Shown here: one piece after another, positions 29,779 to 40,537 of the stretch
How positions within the stretch are numbered: position 1 is the first letter of the stretch
Layout of the letters: every line of letters begins with the position of its first letter
Assembly (NCBI GenBank): GCA_009733575.1
Contig: ML769388.1
Span: 496,001 to 560,000 of the forward strand
DNA from: Gymnopus androsaceus JB14
Lineage: Eukaryota > Basidiomycota > Agaricomycetes > Agaricales > Omphalotaceae
Length of the DNA stretch: 64,000 nucleotides
Direction: 5' to 3'
The notes under the pieces: generated by a model
The model's database searches: none
Seen by the model: the letters and a program-made list of their open reading frames with translations, nothing else
Told to the model about the DNA's origin: nothing
Program-made: the position numbers and the translations under genes

Positions 29779-32499
29779 TCAAGACCAGGATGTAGGCCCA
29801 AAGGTACCGTTCGGGCCATTTGGTAGCTTGAATGGAAGACCCATGGCGTCAGCGGTATTCTGCCACACCGTGTTCCCCCACCAGTTCAAAGTGAAGCCGC
29901 CTTTAGGCAATTGCACAAAGAAGAATATCAAGATGAGGCTGACAGCGACACCACTGTCGAGAGCAGCGGAAAGGATGTAGTTGTAACGCATCCACCACCT
30001 AAAGTGGAAGCGACGGATGCAATAGTTGAAAACGAATCCAACTGCGGCCCAGGAGGTGTAGTTGATTCCGGAAGCAGGAGGGATGGCTCCGACACCACCG
30101 AAGAATACAGGAATATTCACGTATCTCCAGAACGAGAGAGGATAACGACGGGCGAGGAAGTAGAACGGAATGGGAAGGATAGCGCCAATGAGGTAAAAGT
30201 ACAGCAGAGGGTTGTAAGGAGCGCCAACGCTGAACATTCGAGCAGGACCTACTCCGCCCCAGATTAACGACGAAGATGCAAATGTATTGGTGGAGGGGCA
30301 GGTGAACCCGTTGGGCTGGTGAGGTTGGCAGTAGTCAACAATGTTGTGGAACATCCACTCCTGGACGGCGGTCGATACTACACACGCAACGAGGACCGCA
30401 ACAGTCTGAACGGTGAACATAAGACGAGGGGGAATCTTCATGTAATGGCCGAGCTTCATGTCACCAGCGAACGCAATCGCTTGGGCGGTGGTAATGTAGG
30501 TGACACCTTTGAAGATGATGACAGCAACGGGACGTTCAGGCAGAATGTAACCGCCGATGAGTTCATAGAACACTTGGATATTGGCCACCTGTTGGTTGGT
30601 GATAGCTTGGAGCATGGCCATGGGGAGAGCGAGGACGGATGCAAGGATAAATCCTAGAACTGCGGCCCACACCGGGAAGTTCGTTGGTACGAGGTGCACG
30701 GAAATAAGGAATAAAACCATGGCAATGACACCAAGAGCAGTGTACCACGTCCAAGGAACCTCGCGGTAAGCCAACATAAGGCGAGAGTGCACATCACGTT
30801 CATCCTTGAGGGAAGAGCGGAAACGACGAGCGATATCGCGTCGGAACCACACTGCAAGAAAAAGAAAGCGTTGAGTTGAGAGGAAAGGCAGCAAAGGTAA
30901 ATAACATACAGAAAGTGTGCACGAACACTGCAGCAAAGGAAGCAAAAGAGCTGGCGTAGGCGATGGAAAGGGTAATGGGAATAGTAGACGGGAGAGTAGG
31001 CAAGGTATTTGGCATTATCGAACTGCCCATTCGTAACGAACTTGAGTAACATCATATTCAGCACCAGTACGATCGAAAACGACCGGAGCAGAGATCGGAA
31101 GGTATGCAGAATTGAAAGCGTTAGAAACTATGAAAGAAATAAGTGCCAAATTCGAGATAGGAAAAAAGTGACGCTTACAGTAGAGGATGGGAGCCAAGAT
31201 GAAGAACTGGATGACAAGCGAAACAATCGTGTTCAATTCAGACCACCACTAAGAATTCAGGTCAGAAAGTGAACGTAGATAGAGCGAGTAAACTCACGGG
31301 TGTGACTAGAGGGCTACCGATATATCCGACCATAGCCCAGTCGAAGGTAAAGATACCCATTCCTAAACCGGTACTCGTTCCAAAGAGCGCATTGACAGGA
31401 ACGTTATTGGGGGCGATCCAGCAAACCCAGTTGAAGACACTGAGAGCGGTAAAAAGGTACCCTGGCAGCCAGTAATAGACGGCGCTGCCCACAAATGCGA
31501 GGAGGAAAAAGCGTTCCCGAGTCATGTGCCCGCGTTCGCGTTTCCCGTATGATTTGTGCAAGGTGTTAAATAGCGCCGCGTTCACCAGTGCTCCAGGCCA
31601 CACCATACTCGAGGGCCAGACAACAAATTGCCTAAGGAGACCACCCAAGGAGAAGCCGAGTACCTGTGAGCCGACACAGAGAAGAATCTGGTACCCGTAT
31701 GGGATGGCTTGGTTGTAGAAAATCTTCTGCGTCGCGATAACATCGGTGCAGTATGCACCACCAACAACAATGTTGCCCATGACGGTGATACAGACATGCT
31801 CCTTGATCGTGAAAGGTCCAGGGTTCAAAGACCACCGGTATCCAAAAGTGTTGAATCGATGAGTGGGTAGAATCTTTTCGAGCAATTTACCGAAGGGTAG
31901 AACGACCAGCTGAACAACGATCCCGCTGATGTAGATGGAAGGATCTGAAGGAAATTGTGAGACATTGATATGAGGAGAGTCGAAAACACGTACATCGCGC
32001 GCTGAAGAATTGATTAACACCAGAGACTAGGATCGAGAATACGATCCCCAAAAACCACATGCGAAAGGTGTTGCAAAGCATTGTCGGGTCATCAGTGCTC
32101 GGGACTGCAGCTCGAACTTCGGGATAGGGAGACTCGCTGTTAAAAGAGATATTAATATCGGGAGACGTAGTGATAATAATAAACATACTCGTCAAACTCG
32201 ATAGCTGTCGAGTTCCTTGATTCCGCCCGGGAAGTACGATCAGACATATCGAAATTGGATTCTGCATCTATCTCGGAAGGTGAATACTGCATTTGTTGAG
32301 CCTTCTTGTCCGAAAGCTCCATAGATTCCGTCGACTTGTAAGGCCTCGCAAGGTCTATGTATGGATCATTCAAGTGTTTCTTGATAAAGTCTCCATCGAT
32401 ATCTACAGGGACATCGGGGACTCGACGGGCCCGAAGAGTAGGAGTTGGCATGGAATAGACGTCCTCAGTTGAGGAGGCATAGCCTTTGGTATCTTCCAT
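29779..32499 (-). CDS. OPT-family oligopeptide transporter
   Basis: Proton-coupled importer of small peptides (tetra/pentapeptides, glutathione or metal chelates in this family) in the plasma membrane. ATG 32499 starts a soluble N-terminus ([18 protein letters not shown]). After an intron comes the family entry motif [10 protein letters not shown], then many membrane helices. [19 protein letters not shown] and the OPT signature MKIPPRLMF are present. The C-terminus ends [13 protein letters not shown] (TGA 29779-29781). Exons include about 32202-32499, a middle set at 31262-32150, and 29779-30852. The nearby Kex2-repeat peptide precursor and UstYa gene raise the possibility that it handles a cluster peptide, but OPT genes are common in fungi and may be unrelated. 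Confidence 0.9.
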
Positions 32500-33533: not shown

Positions 33534-34922
33534 ATGTCCACCACGACCGTTCAAACACAGACTGAAGCTACTCCTTCGACTACTCTGAAGCTTCGCTCCT
33601 CCGCTCCCGAGGAAAAGCCAGAATCCGAAGAATACCGCTACTCCAATCTTCTACCTGTTTTCTCGCAGGATCATTATCCTCCATTGACCCCCTTTGAGCA
33701 TAGTGACCCGGGTCACCGCGCCTTAAAACATTCCAACCCTCGATCTTTCCTTGATAATGCTACTAGCGTAGTTGAAATTACTCCAAATTTGGGCACGGAA
33801 GTGCAGGGTGTTAACCTCCGCACTATCGACTCGGATGCTCGCGATCAGCTTGCTTTGGAGGTAAAGGACATACTAGAGACCGTCCCCAAATTATTCGTGC
33901 TTATCCTCGCGTCTAGGTTGCCCGTCGAGGTCTTGTCGTCTTCAGAGACCAACAAGACTTTATTGATGCTGGCCCTGATTTTTATCTTGAATGGGGCCGC
34001 CATTTTGGACGGTAGGTTTCCATCTCTTTCTCCGCTGCAATATGCTAACTCTGATTTTTGGATCAGTCTCCACATTCACCCCACCTCTGGACATCCAAAC
34101 AACTATCCCGAAGTACACCTTGTATACAGAGACGCAAACTCCACGTTCAACTTTGAGATTGCCGATAGCATTACCTCCACCTTTTGGCACTCTGATGTAT
34201 CATACGAGCTCCAGCCTCCTGGACTGACGACGTTTTTCCTCCTTGCACAACCATCAACTGGAGGGGATACCCTTTTCACCTCACAAGTTTCTGCATTGAA
34301 GAAACTCTCGCCTCAGTTCGTAGCTTTCCTCAAAACTCTGAAAGCTGTACACTCCGGAGTTGAACAAGCCAACTTCTCGCGATCAGGAAAGCGAGGAGGT
34401 ATTGTTCGTCGTGAACCTGGTAAGTCGGGTGATACTGTTTGCATACGAAGACTGAAATTTGTCTCATGATACTGTTCAGTTGAAAATGTTCACCCCGTCG
34501 TAAGGAAGCATCCAGTCACAGGAGAAGAAGCTTTGTATGTCAACAGGCAGTTTACGCGTAGGATTCTTGGTCTCAAACGCGAAGAATCAGGTATAACGCG
34601 TCGAACCTTCATGTCATTTATGACCGATAAAGCAACTTTTTTAGAAACGCTTCTCAGGTTCCTATATGACCATATTGACAAAGGTGGCGATGTTCAAGCC
34701 CGAGTGAAATGGACTCCAAACACAGTCGTCCTTTGGGATAATCGGGTCACTGCTCATGTTTGTCCTTTTTCTATATCAATACCCACCTCTTATGAACTCA
34801 CTACCTCGCAGTCTGCGATTGTTGATTATGGAGAATCGAAGGAACGTCGACATGGTGCCCGGATCACACCACAAGCAGAGCGACCAATTCCAGCGTTAGA
34901 TGGACTTGATCTCAGTGTATGA
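33534..34922 (+). CDS. TauD/TfdA-type Fe(II)/2-oxoglutarate dioxygenase
   Basis: Oxidises a substrate (sulfonates such as taurine in characterised relatives) using Fe(II), O2 and 2-oxoglutarate. After about 60 polar residues comes the N-terminal core (NLGTEVQGVNL). An intron follows (donor after GCTTTGGAG, acceptor before GTTGCC), then RRGLVVFRDQQDFIDAG. Iron ligands are the HxD pair in TFWHSDVSYE and a distal His in DNRVTAHSAIVDY, whose codon directly precedes an intron. The 2-oxoglutarate-binding Arg is probably in ERRHGARITPQAERP. Frame and splice sites are clean over six exons; TGA is at 34920-34922. It lies 2 kb from the UstYa gene, so it could belong to the same pathway, but simple sulfur scavenging is equally possible. 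Confidence 0.87.
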
Positions 34923-34989: not shown

Positions 34990-36182
34990 TTATGCAGCCG
35001 TTCCGATAGAGGAATTTGCCTTCTGTAGATCGAAGAAACGTTCTCCTTTTTCCGGGTCAATATCAGAATTTTTTGTAAACATAGTTGGAGAAGTGAGCTG
35101 TCCGACAGTATCCTTTGTCCAACCTTGACCCATAGCAATCCGAAGAATAATCATCTGGGGCGATATTGCCTATAATAGCATTGGTCAGTTCATCTCAGAA
35201 CAATATCAGCACGCCACTTACGCAAAAATCTCCCCATACTTGGACCAGAGCAATCGAGGTTTGGCTTTTGCGCGCGTAGACAACCACGTAAACGATTCCA
35301 AATACCGTGAACAGCGCTGCAGACTCGACCAAGATAGCGATGATGCTTGTATACATTTTTGCATGGGAGGGGCCGAGAATTTTCCCTACGTCCTTCCGAA
35401 GAGAAAGCAAACGTCCACATATAAGGGCTGTAACGATGATGTTGAGGCTAATTGTGAGAGATACATAAGGTATCCCAAAGTCGACAGCGTGCCCAACGAA
35501 AAAATTTGCTCCTGGCTGAGCGCTTTCGAAGATGAGCAGAACGGACATAGCTTTGAACCAAAGGTAAATGAGCTACACGATGAGCAAAAATCAAGTACGT
35601 ACATAGGCCACCAAGGTAAATAATAATAGGAAACACGATGACTTTCCAAGAATTCCAAATGATATAGCAACGATAGATCTATGTGAGGCATTAGACATAC
35701 GAGATTGGATAGTGGCAATGAAATCTTACCAGCAATCCATCACCCAAAAAGTTCAACATGACACCTGCGGTAGTGCCTACAGTGTTATAGACAGCTGAGA
35801 TGTTTTCTCCGATGTAGGCAGCGGGCCCGCCTTGTACATCACGATGATCAATCCACGAGTTTTGCCCAAAGACCGCATTGCAAGCTAATGCAATGGTCCA
35901 TAGTATCAGAAGGACTGCGCCATAGATAATATAGAAGTTAGCGCCGGATCGTCCAGTACTACTCGATGAGTTGGTTCTGAGGAGCAAGCGGCAAGATAAA
36001 CAGTAGACGACCAGCTGAATTCCTGTATTTCATTAATGTACTACTTCAGTCGGATTGTCCTCCTACAAGATCGCGGACATAAGAGACCCACCATATAATA
36101 TGCCAGTTATCTGTCCTCCGATATACAGCGATCGCTCAAATGTGAGCTCGCTGGGGGTATCAAAGCTATTGGTGGTTGACAT
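34990..36182 (-). CDS. Seven-helix integral membrane protein, mushroom-type family
   Basis: ATG 36182 starts MSTTNSFDTPSELTFERSLY. I count seven hydrophobic helices: GGQITGILYGIQLVVYCLSC, IYGAVLLILWTIALACNAVF, a helix around GTTAGVMLNFLGDGLL, VIVFPIIIYLGGL, the helix around SMSVLLIFESAQPG, LTISLNIIVTALICG and IIAILVESAALFTVFGIVYV. A charged C-terminal tail ends SSIGTAA with TAA at 34990-34992. Five exons; the fourth starts after a long intron ending near 35548, chosen to keep LSMSVLLIF in frame. The extracellular segment SWIDHRDVQGGPAAY is typical of an expanded, uncharacterised agaricomycete 7TM family (from memory). Function unknown; receptor-like topology is only a topology statement. Confidence 0.78.
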
Positions 36183-36806
36183 GGGGTTTCAACTGAGAGA
36201 GAAATGGTGGAAGGCTGCCTTTTACATGTCATCAACAGTCAGTCAAAGTCTTTGCTTTCTCCTGACGGAACGAACAGAATTAGAAGAGTATCTCGGCGCT
36301 ACATATTAGAATGACAGGCGGGTAGCATGCTGCATTCTGCTGCATCAAGCGATAGGATTGGCGCTCTAAGGATAGTGGTCCCTATATCATGATCATGGAT
36401 AGTGTGAATAGAGTTTTAATTCCGCTGATGTGTCCGGGGAGATTTTATACATACGTGAAAGTTGTACGGCAAAAAGAATATTGACTAGCGAGAACCGCGA
36501 AACCAAGGAAACTCAGAACAGCAAGGCTGCAAACTTGAAGATTCTGGGGATTTGGGGTCGACGCTGGACCAGTGGAAGTGACAATTCCTTTTCGATGGGT
36601 CCTCTGACTGTGAGGAAATGTGAACCCATCTGCCAATGTCATTGTCAGATCTTATGATCAACAGGTACAAGATAATAACGGCGCCGAAGATTCGTAAGAG
36701 ATTGTATCAGGGATCCTGGAACTCCTGGAAACTATGAATCGATTTCAAGCACTATCTCCACCTGTATACATCCCAGAACCTACTAGTACTGAGGCCAACG
36801 TTGTTA
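36183..36806. other. Intergenic region, no gene seen
   Basis: Upstream region of the 7TM gene and 3' flank of the UstYa-like gene, both minus. Short open frames at 36430-36670 on both strands have no motif. Confidence 0.4.
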
Positions 36807-37713
36807 CTAAAATTTAGTAATAACCAAGTCGTCGTCGATATAAATCGACATATTCTGCTGTCGAGGAACGAAATGTTTTCGAGCCCATTCCTTGATTGCC
36901 TCAAAGTCTCTGCAAGTGTGAACGACATCACTGCGTTCTTTGGCTGCCTTTGATTTCTCAGACCACTGCCAAACGATGGGAGTGATATCAGCGGAGCACA
37001 TAATGGACTGCCTCAAGCTTGAGATACAGTGCTGCATGTGCGGAGAATGAATACCCTCTTCGGTTATAGGGTAGTATTCCGGATACATAGCCTTCCGCAT
37101 CTCGTTCTGACAGACAAGTGTTAGAAAATCGGCCAGCAGGGCTCGCTCCAAGAGCTCACCAAGCAATGCAGTTGGTGGAAGACATCCAGGGCAATCATGT
37201 AATGATCTTCCTCTCCAAGAATAGGATAAGTCTTGTTTGACATGAGCGCGGCCTCCTCTCGCGGTACTTTGTTCAGTGCGACTGTGGACAGGCGTCAGCG
37301 ACCGAAATATGGTTTTATGCAGAGACCGAACTTGCATTCGTAAAGACTATCCCATGCAGCATCGACATCTTGGGACGGCGGACGATCGTATATGGGCAGA
37401 TCCGCTCCAAACCCGCTATGAAACTGTACTATTTGATACTCGATAGCATCTTGAGCTGGCGCTGAAATACATTAATGAGTACTAGAAAGGTTGTGACCAA
37501 GAATATCTTACAATAAAGGAAGGGTACAACGATGGAACTGAGAGGGGGCTGGATAATGCTAAAGAGGACGGCATTCAAGATCAATGATCCCAGAAGAAAG
37601 CATCGAAGAAGCCATGTATAGAGCTGCGAATGTTGACTGCTCGGCTTGAGAATATTTTCTTCAGAGTCATGCCCAATAAGCGGAAGATAGGCAACGGAAC
37701 TTCTAGAACGCAT
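36807..37713 (-). CDS. UstYa-like (DUF3328) oxidative RiPP-tailoring protein
   Basis: In ascomycete ustiloxin, phomopsin and asperipin clusters, UstY proteins cyclise the peptide core. Exons 37512-37713, 37336-37461, 37160-37281 and 36807-37106 give 249 aa. Residues 31-53 form one transmembrane helix (YTWLLRCFLLGSLILNAVLF), followed by YSPAQDAIEYQ. The family hallmarks are complete: EEDHYMIALDVFHQLHC with HQLHC at 145-149, and HSPHMQHCISSLRQSIMC with HMQHC at 173-177. These two HxxHC motifs are the presumed metal-binding and catalytic elements. ADITPIVW and HTCRDFEAIKEWA follow, as in known members. Intron 2 is GC-AG (donor GCAAGT at 37335-37330). The gene lies 1.3 kb from a Kex2-repeat precursor, the combination seen in dikaritin pathways. 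Confidence 0.93.
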
Positions 37714-38416
37714 TGTGGACTGAGTGGAGTAGGCTGCTCACACCTATTCAGGCAATCGTTAAATATGCAACTTACCTATCTCCCAGTAAAGGAAGCAGCG
37801 CATTACAAGTTGTGCAATGCGGTGTGTCTAGTAGTATTCCTGTGTCTGTACAAGTTCAAACACTGTACTAGGTTTGGCTGATGTAGTACAGTAATTAAAC
37901 GGCAGGTATGCAGAACTCACCTTGCAATAATTGACAACTAGAAGGAGGATTTACGACAGGTACTTGATTCATTGGATAACTACGACGCGTATGAAGGGGC
38001 AATATTGGCGGATTAGATATGAAAATGCAATGCATATGATATCCTTAGGCATCGCAGTTGAATGTGTCTCTGTTCTGCTGAGATCCCGAGACAGAGCGGG
38101 TCCATCAAGAGCCAATATTCTTCGTTAGTAGAGCCCATTTGAACAGACGACACTGATAGGTGAGGAGGATAGTAGGATAGCTGAATTGTTGTAGTTTAGT
38201 TGAAGATTCAAGAATCCGGAGTCGCGCATCGTTTCAAGGATTGCTATCCAACATTCGACTTATTTCGACGATTTTATTTGTTGAGAATCCAGATCCGACG
38301 GATGCTATACCTGACAGAAGTTTTGGAAAGTCTGAGACTCTGAGTGAGTTTGAACCTCACTTGTACAAAGATATGGAGGTGAACCGTGAGATCTTGAGAA
38401 CCCACTGAGTCCGCAT
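37714..38416. other. Intergenic region, no gene seen
   Basis: Upstream region of the UstYa-like gene and 3' flank of the 86-aa gene, both minus. AT-rich; the open frames at 37630-37881 and 37931-38128 have no recognisable product. Confidence 0.4.
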
Positions 38417-38760
38417 TTAGCGCTCAGCTTCTTCAAGCTTGTTTATTTGAAGTAATGCGCTGGTCCATTCCTCCTGCGCTGCAGCAAACAGCAGATCCAT
38501 ATTATGCCGATTCACGAATGAAACGCGCGTTGTTCTGGGCCTGTCAGCTTGCTCGACCTCCTCCAGACGTTTCTGCAATGATAGACAGAAGAAACGCGAT
38601 TTAACCCTCAAAAGTAGTCGCGCCACTAGATTTGACTCCAAATATGTCATGACCCGCTTGTCGCTCATTTCTAACTGATCTCAGAGTCACTCGTCTTCTC
38701 CCTATCGGCCCAGAATTGCGCCTTCAACAAATTCAGTGTCAGGTCAAGATGCGCTGCCAT
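38417..38760 (-). CDS. Small 86-aa helical protein, three exons, unknown function
   Basis: ATG 38760 starts MAAHLDLTLNLLKAQFWADR. Exons 38676-38760, 38606-38625 (20 nt) and 38417-38572 join with two GT-AG introns (50 and 33 nt) into one open frame of 86 codons plus TAA. The product is predicted almost wholly helical and charged (KRLEEVEQADRPRTTR, LLFAAAQEEWTSALLQINK), with no signal peptide. I do not recognise a family. It sits between the UstYa-like gene and the repeat precursor, and is divergent from the precursor with 240 bp between ATGs, so it may share its promoter. The frame and splice agreement support a real gene, but no homologue is known to me. Confidence 0.5.
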
Positions 38761-38927
38761 TTTTTGTGGGTCAAGTCTCTGGTTCCCTCCGTTTAGCGGT
38801 AAGTCGTATTAGGTATACAGTGCATCGCTTGAACAGCCCAGGTCAGAAAAATAGTAGGTACACCTTCACTGCCGAACTTCAAGTTATACTCTGTTCGTTT
38901 TTTAAGAATTAATATTACAAGCCCGAG

Positions 38928-38934
38928 TATAAAA
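38928..38934 (+). promoter_or_regulatory. TATA box of the repeat-peptide precursor gene
   Basis: Perfect TATAAAA located 67-73 bp upstream of the precursor ATG at 39001, followed by a pyrimidine-rich stretch typical of fungal start regions. It suggests regulated or strong expression. Confidence 0.55.
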
Positions 38935-39000
38935 GTGCAGTTGGTTTGTCTGCAGTACTCATCATCTTCCCTCATTCATCTGCTCCGCTATTTTTTCAAC

Positions 39001-40537
39001 ATGCAAATCACCGGTTTAATCCTTTTCGCTCTGGCATCCAACGCGCTGGCTTTGCCGTTCAAGGACAGTGAAGGTGAGGGCTCGCTACTACCATGTCTTC
39101 TAATACGAGTTGTTGACTCAAGTCGTTGATATAGTTGGCAACCACGCCCTCAGCGGTGACCATCAAATCAGTAAGTAATGTCTACCAACGTCAGGAAAGA
39201 TGTTGAACGGTTGAGCTAGATACTTTAGACGATGGTTTGCTTGCGAGGTAAGCCTAGAACTCTTAGCTCTCAATCGTTCTTTGCTTACCACTGCGGCTTT
39301 TAGGAGAGATGGTTTGTTTTGCTTAGGCTAGTCGCGTGCTTCCAATTGACTTTGACTGCTACTAGGAGCTATAGGCGACATCTTCGCCAACGTTCAGCGG
39401 GACTCTGCTGTCGAGCCGTAAATTCCAAAATCAAATTTCCCGGGAACGCTCACACTAATTTCTTTTACTGACAAACAGCGCCCCAACTTCTACTTTTATC
39501 TCGGAGTCCCCCGCGCCATTGATCTTTGCGAAGATTGCATGGGAAGCCGAGTGAGTTTGGTCTTAATCATATCATGAAATGTACTTATTACTTCCCTAAA
39601 TTTTTCTCCAGGAAAAGAGACGGTAGCAGCGTTACTTCTGCTATCAGTGCGACCTTGACCCCTCCTCCTCTCATCTTCGCTAAGGAAGCTTGGGAGGCCG
39701 AGTGAGTTTCCAATCTCCGGTTTGTATTTATATATGAATGTTTTCTTTAGGAAAAGGGACAGTAGTAGTGCTGCTTCTGCTACCACAACGCCCTTGACCC
39801 CTCCTCTCATCTTCGCTAAGGAAGCCTGGGAGGCCGAGTGAGCATTCAATCTCCGATTTGTATTTGTATATGAATGTTTTCTTTAGGAAAAGGGACAGTA
39901 GCAGTGCTGCTTCTGCTTCCACAACGCCCTTGACCCCTCCTCCTCTCATCTTCGCTAAGGAAGCTTGGGAGGCCGAGTGAGTATTCAATCTCTGGTTTGT
40001 ATTTGTATATGAATGTTTTCTTTAGGAAAAGGGACAGTAGCAATGCTGCTTCTGCTACCACAATGCCCTTGACCCCTCCTCCTCTCATCTTCGCTAAGGA
40101 AGCTTGGGAGGCCGAGTGAGTTTCCAATCTCCGGTTTGTATTTATATATGAATGTTTTCTTTAGGAAAAGGGACAGTAGTAGTGCTGCTTCTGCTACCAC
40201 AACGCCCCTGACTCCTCCTCTCATCTTTGCTAAGGAAGCTTGGGAGGCCGAGTGAGTTTTCAATCTCCGTTTTGTATTTGTATATGAATGTTTTCTTTAG
40301 GAAAAGGGACAGTAGCAGTGCTGCTTCTGCTACCACAACGCTCTTGACCCCTCCTCCTCTCATCTTCGCTAAGGAAGCCTGGGAGGCTAAGTGAGTTCTC
40401 TAAGGCATGATGATAATTATTACTTATCAGAATATCCTTCTAGGAAAAGAGACAGTAGTACCGTTGCTTCTGCTACCAGCGCGACTTTGACGCCTCTGAG
40501 TCCCATCATCTTCGCGAAAGAGGCTTGGGAAGCGTGA
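39001..40537 (+). CDS. Secreted Kex2-processed repeat peptide precursor (candidate RiPP)
   Basis: Thirteen exons: 39001-39073, 39135-39170, 39229-39247, 39304-39311, 39366-39417, 39479-39550, then seven repeat exons 39612-39701, 39751-39837, 39887-39976, 40026-40115, 40165-40251, 40301-40390, 40444-40537. Total 295 aa. Signal peptide MQITGLILFALASNALA (residues 1-17). The leader has a possible site LLARRD and a first core copy ending PAPLIFAKIAWEAE. KR sites at 88, 118, 147, 177, 207, 236 and 266 release peptides of 27-28 aa: D, a Ser/Ala/Thr-rich spacer, then (T)PPLIFAKEAWEAE. The last copy reads SPIIFAKEAWEA. The conserved part is LIFAKEAWEA; the spacer varies. Kex2 in the Golgi would cut after KR. 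With the UstYa-like gene nearby this matches a dikaritin-type precursor, but the modified core is unproven. No CAAX motif, so it is not a basidiomycete mating pheromone. Confidence 0.9.
39612..40537 (+). repeat. Tandem exon-intron repeat array, seven units of about 136-143 bp
   Basis: Each unit is one exon (87 or 90 nt, last 94) plus one intron (49 nt for the five central ones). Exon starts are spaced 139, 136, 139, 139, 136 and 143 bp. The introns following units 1 and 4 are identical over all 49 bases, and the others differ by a few bases, so the introns are duplicated along with the exons. Units 2 and 5 share the shorter PLTPPLIF form, giving a three-unit period of 414 bp. The first and last units and the last intron are diverged, as expected for array edges. 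Confidence 0.93.

What the first reader, a model, noticed from the sequence alone, without database searches (positions are those of the whole stretch)
36807..40537. Candidate basidiomycete RiPP locus: UstYa-like oxidase beside a Kex2-repeat precursor
Seen: a DUF3328 protein with both HxxHC motifs and one N-terminal TM helix, and 1.3 kb away a secreted precursor with seven KR sites releasing near-identical peptides ending PLIFAKEAWEAE. Known: in Aspergillus, Ustilaginoidea and Phomopsis, UstY proteins plus a Kex2-repeat precursor define dikaritin RiPPs (ustiloxin, asperipin, phomopsin). Inference: this locus makes a modified or cyclic secreted peptide in a mushroom, where such pathways are hardly described. 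The invariant Trp, Phe, Ile and Lys of the core are plausible modification sites.
Basis: partly seen in the sequence, partly recalled or inferred. Interest (0 to 1): 0.92.

Follow-up and report, generated by a model that had tools for sequence, protein, structure and literature searches.

The report
Mushroom peptide gene beside UstYa oxidase
A mushroom genome carries a gene for a secreted protein made of eight near-identical peptides, one per exon, next to a gene for an enzyme of the kind that chemically locks such peptides into rings in moulds; the same pairing recurs elsewhere in this genome, so mushrooms may make more such modified peptides than gene catalogues show.

Summary
A complete 249-aa UstYa-family gene (36807-37713, minus strand; both HxxHC motifs, one N-terminal hydrophobic helix) lies 1,287 bp head-to-head from a secreted Kex2-repeat precursor (39001-40537): 8 core units, 7 KR sites, one unit per exon. 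The IFAKxxW core recurs in all 7 homologues found. The locus has no tyrosinase and the core no Tyr. Beyond the finding: of 22 UstYa clusters examined in this 83-Mb genome, the window and 5 others have clear Kex2-repeat precursors close by; 3 more have related, short or apparently decayed ones. Five loci share both one UstYa clade and one precursor family, so the genes look duplicated together. Best reading: a dikaritin-type RiPP locus whose UstYa oxidises a Trp/Phe-containing core. Product, bond and function are not shown. Basidiomycete UstYa-precursor pairs were counted before (Umemura 2020: 103 of 1,680), so this is a new variant of a known kind. Unit-per-exon genes may explain why few were found.

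The parts
36807..37713 (-). UstYa-family (DUF3328) oxidase gene, 4 exons (37713-37512, 37461-37336, 37281-37160, 37106-36807), 249 aa
   Evidence: splice model with open frame; PF11807 E 2.8e-51; orthologues up to 73% identity over 99% of the protein
37552..37617 (-). predicted N-terminal transmembrane helix (residues 33-54)
   Evidence: hydropathy windows over 1.6 from residue 33, peak 36-54; the Collybiopsis orthologue P0009 is modelled as helix 26-49
37163..37177 (-). first HxxHC motif (HQLHC)
   Evidence: sequence; H145, H148, C149 invariant in 45 aligned proteins
37026..37040 (-). second HxxHC motif (HMQHC)
   Evidence: sequence; H176 and C177 invariant, H173 nearly invariant in 45 aligned proteins
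37714..39000 (.). 1,287-bp intergenic stretch between the two divergently read genes
   Evidence: gene models
39001..40537 (+). Kex2-repeat precursor gene; about 13 exons, about 298 aa, signal peptide plus 8 IFAKxAWEA units and a vestigial GDIFANVQ unit
   Evidence: splice models; homologues; no other match in the genome
39001..39073 (+). exon 1, signal-peptide-like start MQITGLILFALASNALALPFKDSE
   Evidence: sequence; LALPFK is kept in 5 of the 6 Lentinula homologues, LALPF in the sixth, P0126
39479..39550 (+). unit 1 exon, core LIFAKIAWEA
39612..39701 (+). unit 2 exon, KR + core LIFAKEAWEA
39751..39837 (+). unit 3 exon
39887..39976 (+). unit 4 exon
40026..40115 (+). unit 5 exon
40165..40251 (+). 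unit 6 exon
40301..40390 (+). unit 7 exon, ends EAWEAK before KR
40444..40537 (+). unit 8 exon, core IIFAKEAWEA then stop

Best explanation
A two-gene dikaritin-type RiPP locus. The precursor enters the ER through its signal peptide. The UstYa protein, anchored by one N-terminal helix with its HxxHC domain on the lumenal side, oxidises the conserved IFAKEAW core, most likely by linking Trp (or Phe) to a nearby side chain such as Ile or Lys. Kex2 cuts after KR, Kex1 removes the basic residues, and up to eight peptides, mostly of 27-28 residues (e.g. DSSSAASATTTPLTPPLIFAKEAWEAE), are secreted. Shown here: gene structures, motifs, conserved pairing, conserved core, and matching duplication of such pairs in this genome. 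Inferred: secretion, Kex2/Kex1 processing, that UstYa acts on this precursor, and the kind of bond.
For: UstYa is complete, with both HxxHC motifs. The adjacency is conserved: Collybiopsis confluens precursor D9757_002198 and UstYa D9757_002199 are both listed with a 726,963-b contig, and L. aciculospora P0001 and P0007 both with a 4,268,692-b contig. In 47 core-like units of 8 proteins, K is kept in 43 and W in 43. Core codons change mostly silently. In the same genome 5 of 21 further UstYa clusters have clear Kex2-repeat precursors and 3 more have related ones. Four precursor unit families searched genome-wide matched only at their UstYa loci. Five loci share both one UstYa clade (67-80% identity to the L018 C-terminal exon against 40% or less for the other loci listed) and one precursor family by signal peptide, which fits duplication of the two genes as a unit.
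Against: No product or expression data. The core has no Tyr and the locus no tyrosinase (the one tyrosinase gene found is on contig C71), unlike ustiloxin and phomopsin. The six Lentinula homologues keep the core but have only 0-2 dibasic sites, and Collybiopsis 3, so release of every core by Kex2 is not conserved, or their gene models are wrong. KEP peptides so far detected in mushrooms were linear or minimally modified (PMC9769878). 12 of 21 other UstYa clusters showed no precursor in the flanks examined, among them L025 and L026, whose UstYa pieces score highest against the window's last exon; a 13th, L022, gave a scan hit that I rejected as a tandem DNA repeat.
Confidence: 0.7

Rival explanations
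1. The precursor makes linear secreted signalling or defence peptides of the common mushroom KEP type (Trp near the C-terminus); the neighbouring UstYa acts on something else or is dispensable.
For: Linear KEP peptides ending in Trp were detected in Lentinula edodes and two Pleurotus species, and from a Coprinopsis precursor expressed in yeast (PMC9769878). The last unit here ends EAWEA. Only 6.1% of basidiomycete KEPs were counted with a UstYa neighbour (PMC7329392).
Against: Pairing kept in Collybiopsis. Pairs recur, and some appear co-duplicated, in this genome. The mushroom mass-spectrometry study matched spectra to precursor sequences with Mascot; I infer that crosslinked cores could be missed that way.
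Confidence: 0.22
2. UstYa modifies the peptide without a crosslink: hydroxylation, desaturation or chlorination of the core.
For: UstYa homologues are reported to desaturate residues in phomopsin (PMC10512285 passage) and to take part in hydroxylation and chlorination in cyclochlorotine (PMC12048977 passage).
Against: Nothing in the sequence separates this from crosslinking; the conserved Trp and Lys fit either.
Confidence: 0.3
3. Chance neighbours: an unrelated secreted repeat protein beside one of many UstYa genes.
For: The genome has many UstYa matches (51 exon-level hits), and most named neighbours are housekeeping genes.
Against: Consecutive locus tags in Collybiopsis and a shared contig length in Lentinula aciculospora; repeated and apparently co-duplicated pairs in the genome.
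Confidence: 0.06

Closest known systems
Dikaritins (ustiloxin, phomopsin, asperipin-2a, victorin; ascomycete UstYa RiPPs)
   Same: Secreted precursor with signal peptide and Kex2-separated repeated cores beside a DUF3328/UstYa gene with two HxxHC motifs; like asperipin-2a (PMC7329392 passage), a single UstYa gene lies at the precursor.
   Different: Basidiomycete; core of Phe/Trp/Ile/Lys without Tyr; no tyrosinase, methyltransferase or peptidase among Pfam matches at E 0.01 in the 19.2 kb of flanks scanned; one unit per exon; product unknown.
Agaricomycete KEPs with linear peptides (Vogt et al. 2022, PMC9769878)
   Same: Mushroom, signal peptide, dibasic-separated repeats, Trp near the peptide end in several.
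   Different: Those detected were linear or minimally modified; 'UstY' and 'DUF3328' do not occur in the main text.
Basidiomycete KEPs with a DUF3328 neighbour (Umemura 2020, PMC7329392; e.g. type P-3 with Trp and Pro, which includes Galerina, Psilocybe, Coprinellus)
   Same: Same gene pairing, including Tyr-free cores.
   Different: Whether this precursor family is in that list could not be checked (supplements not readable here); that survey started from annotated proteins, which multi-exon repeats can escape.

Membership tests
Dikaritin RiPPs | UstYa/DUF3328 protein with two HxxHC motifs | tested here: met
   PF11807 E 2.8e-51; HQLHC and HMQHC
Dikaritin RiPPs | Secreted precursor with signal peptide and repeated cores between Kex2 sites | tested here: met
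   8 units, 7 KR; signal peptide judged by eye and hydropathy only
Dikaritin RiPPs | Precursor and UstYa genes clustered | tested here: met
   1,287 bp apart; consecutive locus tags in Collybiopsis confluens
Dikaritin RiPPs | Oxidative modification or crosslink of the core by UstYa | not testable with these tools
   needs LC-MS/MS and gene deletion
Ustiloxin/phomopsin subtype | Tyr in the core and a clustered tyrosinase | tested here: not met
   no Tyr in units 1-8; the single tyrosinase gene found is on another contig
Linear Agaricomycete KEPs | Peptides released unmodified | not testable with these tools
   no peptide data
Linear Agaricomycete KEPs | Signal peptide and KR-separated repeats | tested here: met

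The most novel reading that the evidence does not exclude
Mushrooms carry a large, largely unannotated set of UstYa-modified secreted peptides whose precursors are built one core per exon. In this genome the oxidase-precursor pair behaves as a duplicating two-gene cassette, and the locus here makes a Trp- or Phe-centred crosslink unlike the Tyr-based links of most ascomycete dikaritins. The low rate reported for basidiomycetes would then reflect gene calling, not biology.
Probability: 0.4. Interest if true: 0.8.

Novelty: new variant of a known kind. Interest (0 to 1): 0.62.

Why it matters
A 2022 review (PMC10512285, passage) lists only five dikaritins, as the sole RiPPs of filamentous fungi or ascomycetes. 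A conserved oxidase-precursor pair in Collybiopsis, Lentinula (which includes edible shiitake) and the fungus of this window would open a basidiomycete branch of the class and predict new Trp/Phe chemistry. The one-unit-per-exon layout gives a concrete, testable reason why surveys of annotated proteins saw so few such pairs in mushrooms.

Tried and rejected

Rejected: L022's repeat hit looks like a tandem DNA repeat of about 115 bp beside an N run, without a signal peptide that I could see, so I dropped it from the strict pairs. Chance neighbourhood was rejected on Collybiopsis and on the paired duplication. A wider biosynthetic cluster is not supported: an OPT transporter and a TauD-type dioxygenase lie within about 7 kb, but no link was shown.

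Weak points: the control set is small. Under the strict scan (three or more similar windows) 0 of 10 control pieces were called (4 random 8-kb stretches and 6 window tiles), but 5 of 21 against 0 of 10 is not significant alone (about 0.12 one-sided, worked out by hand), so the weight rests on conservation, and. The looser scan (two windows), which found L030, also called two of the ten controls (L042 and the tile 16-24 kb) and L036. In one search the separation of the five-locus clade is sharp for the C-terminal exon but weaker for the other exon (82-95% against 54-60% for the next long matches), and only one HxxHC was seen at L030. At least 6 further UstYa places were not examined (C47:257 kb, C342, C437, C445, C165, C159). 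The protein searches scored only the candidates sharing most words. In the core count the pattern demanded IFA in 46 of 47 units, so only the later positions inform. Precursor models for L018 and L030 need unusual splice sites and are tentative; the script did not give usable models for L018, L023, L024 and L030, which I read by eye.
Full report
THE OBSERVATION. The window is part of contig C6 of an 83.3-Mb assembly; its genes and their relatives are fungal. On the minus strand, 37713..36807, four exons joined over two GT-AG introns and one GC-AG intron give a 249-aa protein. It matches Pfam UstYa (PF11807) over model positions 3-220 of 220, E = 2.8e-51, carries HQLHC and HMQHC, and has an N-terminal hydrophobic stretch peaking at residues 36-54. 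In an alignment with 44 relatives, H145, H148, C149, H176 and C177 are invariant. On the plus strand, starting 1,287 bp away, 39001..40537 encodes MQITGLILFALASNALALPFKDSE..., then eight units whose consensus is about (KR)DSSSAASATTTPLTPPxLIFAKEAWEAE. There are seven KR sites. The first core has IAWEAE, the seventh AWEAK, and the last ends AWEA at the stop.

LAYOUT. Each unit is one exon of 72-94 nt. The five central introns are 49 nt long and 90-100% identical, the flanking ones diverged, as expected if the number of units changes by unequal exchange. Core copies 1, 2 and 8 differ pairwise in 6 of 10 codons but in only 1 or 2 residues. All seven unit introns place a TGA directly after the unit if the intron is kept: GAG TGA in six, AAG TGA in one. 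The exons between 39171 and 39365 are uncertain; three models keep the frame (287, 298, 304 aa). The 298-aa and 304-aa models contain an upstream RR site; all three keep a degenerate unit, IGDIFANVQ.

RELATIVES. The precursor has no Pfam match and no second copy was found in its genome. Against 5.8 billion proteins (only the best-sharing 7,996 and 7,998 candidates were scored) it matched Lentinula aciculospora, L. edodes and L. detonsa (best E 2.7e-21); a profile added a second L. edodes protein, L. guzmanii, L. raphanica and Collybiopsis confluens. Five of the six Lentinula homologues share the signal-peptide end LALPFK, and L. raphanica has LALPF; the Collybiopsis model lacks that start. All seven share the core. 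In 47 core-like units from these 8 proteins, Lys is kept in 43 and Trp in 43, and the residue after Trp is E or D in 42 of 45; I, F and A were required by the search pattern in 46. The Lentinula models hold 0-2 dibasic sites and Collybiopsis 3, so separate release of each core is not conserved as annotated. UstYa orthologues at 69-73% identity occur in Lentinula and Collybiopsis, with further relatives in Rhodocollybia, Marasmius, Moniliophthora and Mycena.

CONSERVED PAIRING. In C. confluens the precursor is D9757_002198 and the UstYa D9757_002199, both listed with a 726,963-b contig; consecutive tags mean neighbouring genes by GenBank custom (recalled). In L. aciculospora both proteins are listed with a 4,268,692-b contig; their distance is unknown. 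For the other species the listing does not allow a check.

OTHER PAIRS IN THE SAME GENOME. I examined 22 UstYa clusters: the window, and 21 others read from 23 stretches (L019/L020 and L035/L036 overlap). A scan for three or more similar 18-residue windows around a dibasic site called the window, L018, L021, L022, L023, L031 and L039. I rejected L022 as a tandem DNA repeat. The rest encode signal-peptide-like starts followed by units such as ARTVPEPDNVFAAKYTTLDKREE (L018), IPDPDESFNNKYAKR (L021), EEDTIAFSAGPDGTWLKKR (L023), ALEAPQPLAVFKRTIDNDPAE (L031) and GAELGISFKRDELSPELEKSFKRDEQ (L039); each lies within about 2 kb of the UstYa match (positions). In L021 and L039, and for most units of L031, the splice models place one unit per exon; in L018 the frame shifts at a 128-131 bp period fit this; in L023 the units are in one exon. 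L030, L024 and L028 have related precursors that look decayed, lack dibasic sites, or hold two units. So 6 clear and 3 doubtful of 22. Four random stretches and six window tiles gave no strict call, and 60 shuffles gave none. The looser two-window scan, which found L030, also called two of those ten controls. The control is small.

CO-DUPLICATION. Searched genome-wide, four unit families matched only at their UstYa loci (for L039 a second, mirrored array lies about 4 kb from the UstYa match). The UstYa C-terminal exons of L021, L024, L028 and L030 match that of L018 at 67-80% identity, the other loci listed at 40% or less; for the exon before, L021, L024 and L028 match at 82-95% against 54-60% for the next long matches, and L030 gave no match. 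The same five loci share one precursor family by signal peptide (about E 1e-4 or better). The oxidase and its precursor thus appear to have been copied together. This is the strongest evidence that UstYa and these precursors work together in this fungus, and it supports the reading at the window by analogy only: the window's own UstYa is at most 47% identical to the others over its last exon, and its closest there, L026 and L025, showed no precursor.

SURROUNDINGS. In 27.0-36.6 and 40.8-50.4 kb Pfam finds SGTA, Prp19, an OPT transporter (about 29.9-32.1 kb), a TauD dioxygenase (34.0-34.8 kb), ALG10 (about 40.9-42.5 kb), ATP11 and a kinesin. There is no tyrosinase there; the one found in the genome is on contig C71. 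The locus looks like a two-gene unit among mostly housekeeping genes.

MECHANISM. Shown: gene structures, motifs, conserved pairing and core. Inferred from the known family: the precursor enters the ER; the UstYa domain faces the lumen and oxidises the core; Kex2 and Kex1 release peptides mostly of 27-28 residues (masses). Without Tyr, Trp and Phe are the likely aromatic partners; in victorin a Phe-Leu link is reported (PMC9233826, passage). Other UstYa outcomes (desaturation, hydroxylation, chlorination) remain open.

WHAT IS KNOWN. Umemura 2020 (PMC7329392, passages) surveyed annotated proteins and counted 103 of 1,680 basidiomycete KEPs with a DUF3328 gene within 15 genes, and considered that cyclisation might hardly occur there; 'intron', 'exon' and 'splic' do not occur in its main text. 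Le Marquer 2019 (PMC6339444, passages) has no 'exon' or 'intron' in its text. Vogt 2022 (PMC9769878, sections 5, 6, 8, 10, abstract and passages) detected linear and minimally modified peptides in mushrooms; 'UstY' and 'DUF3328' do not occur in its main text. The eLife paper PMC8893723 (passages) reports 16 UstYa-like genes in Pleurotus, six developmentally expressed. Nine searches of the held open-access library listed no title or abstract start that I recognised as a characterised basidiomycete UstYa peptide; of 72 papers only 30 were listed, and subscription papers and supplements were not seen. Verdict: a real, conserved UstYa-precursor pair, a new variant of a known kind, with the product still to be shown.

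Noticed in passing
window 39551-40443 (unit introns): Retention of any of the 7 unit introns gives an immediate stop (GAG TGA in six, AAG TGA in one), so a truncated precursor would still end like a processed peptide (AWEAE or AWEAK). Possibly a by-product of the GTGAGT donor.
   Followed up: partly
L018, L021, L024, L028, L030 (contigs C5, C155, C14): Five UstYa loci of this genome share one UstYa clade and one precursor family (motif ARTVPEPDxxFxxKY or relatives): apparently a co-duplicated two-gene cassette, with members that look decayed (L024, L030).
   Followed up: yes
G000:C699 10.6-11.5 kb and 17.4-18.3 kb: The L039 precursor units occur as mirror-image arrays on both sides of its UstYa match, with 391-bp inverted arms at 99% identity between them: a recent inverted duplication or an assembly palindrome.
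   Followed up: partly
window 33999-34757, plus strand: TauD/TfdA-type dioxygenase domain 2 kb beyond the UstYa gene; possible tailoring enzyme, no evidence of a link.
   Followed up: no
window 29914-32075, minus strand: OPT oligopeptide transporter gene about 5 kb from the UstYa gene.
   Followed up: no
window about 35190-36190, minus strand: A gene-like stretch with several hydrophobic segments between TauD and UstYa, no Pfam match at E 0.01; looks by eye like a multi-pass membrane protein.
   Followed up: no
L022 1-2000 (contig C14, 345 kb): About 115-bp tandem DNA repeat beside an N run near a UstYa gene; judged non-coding but not proved.
   Followed up: partly
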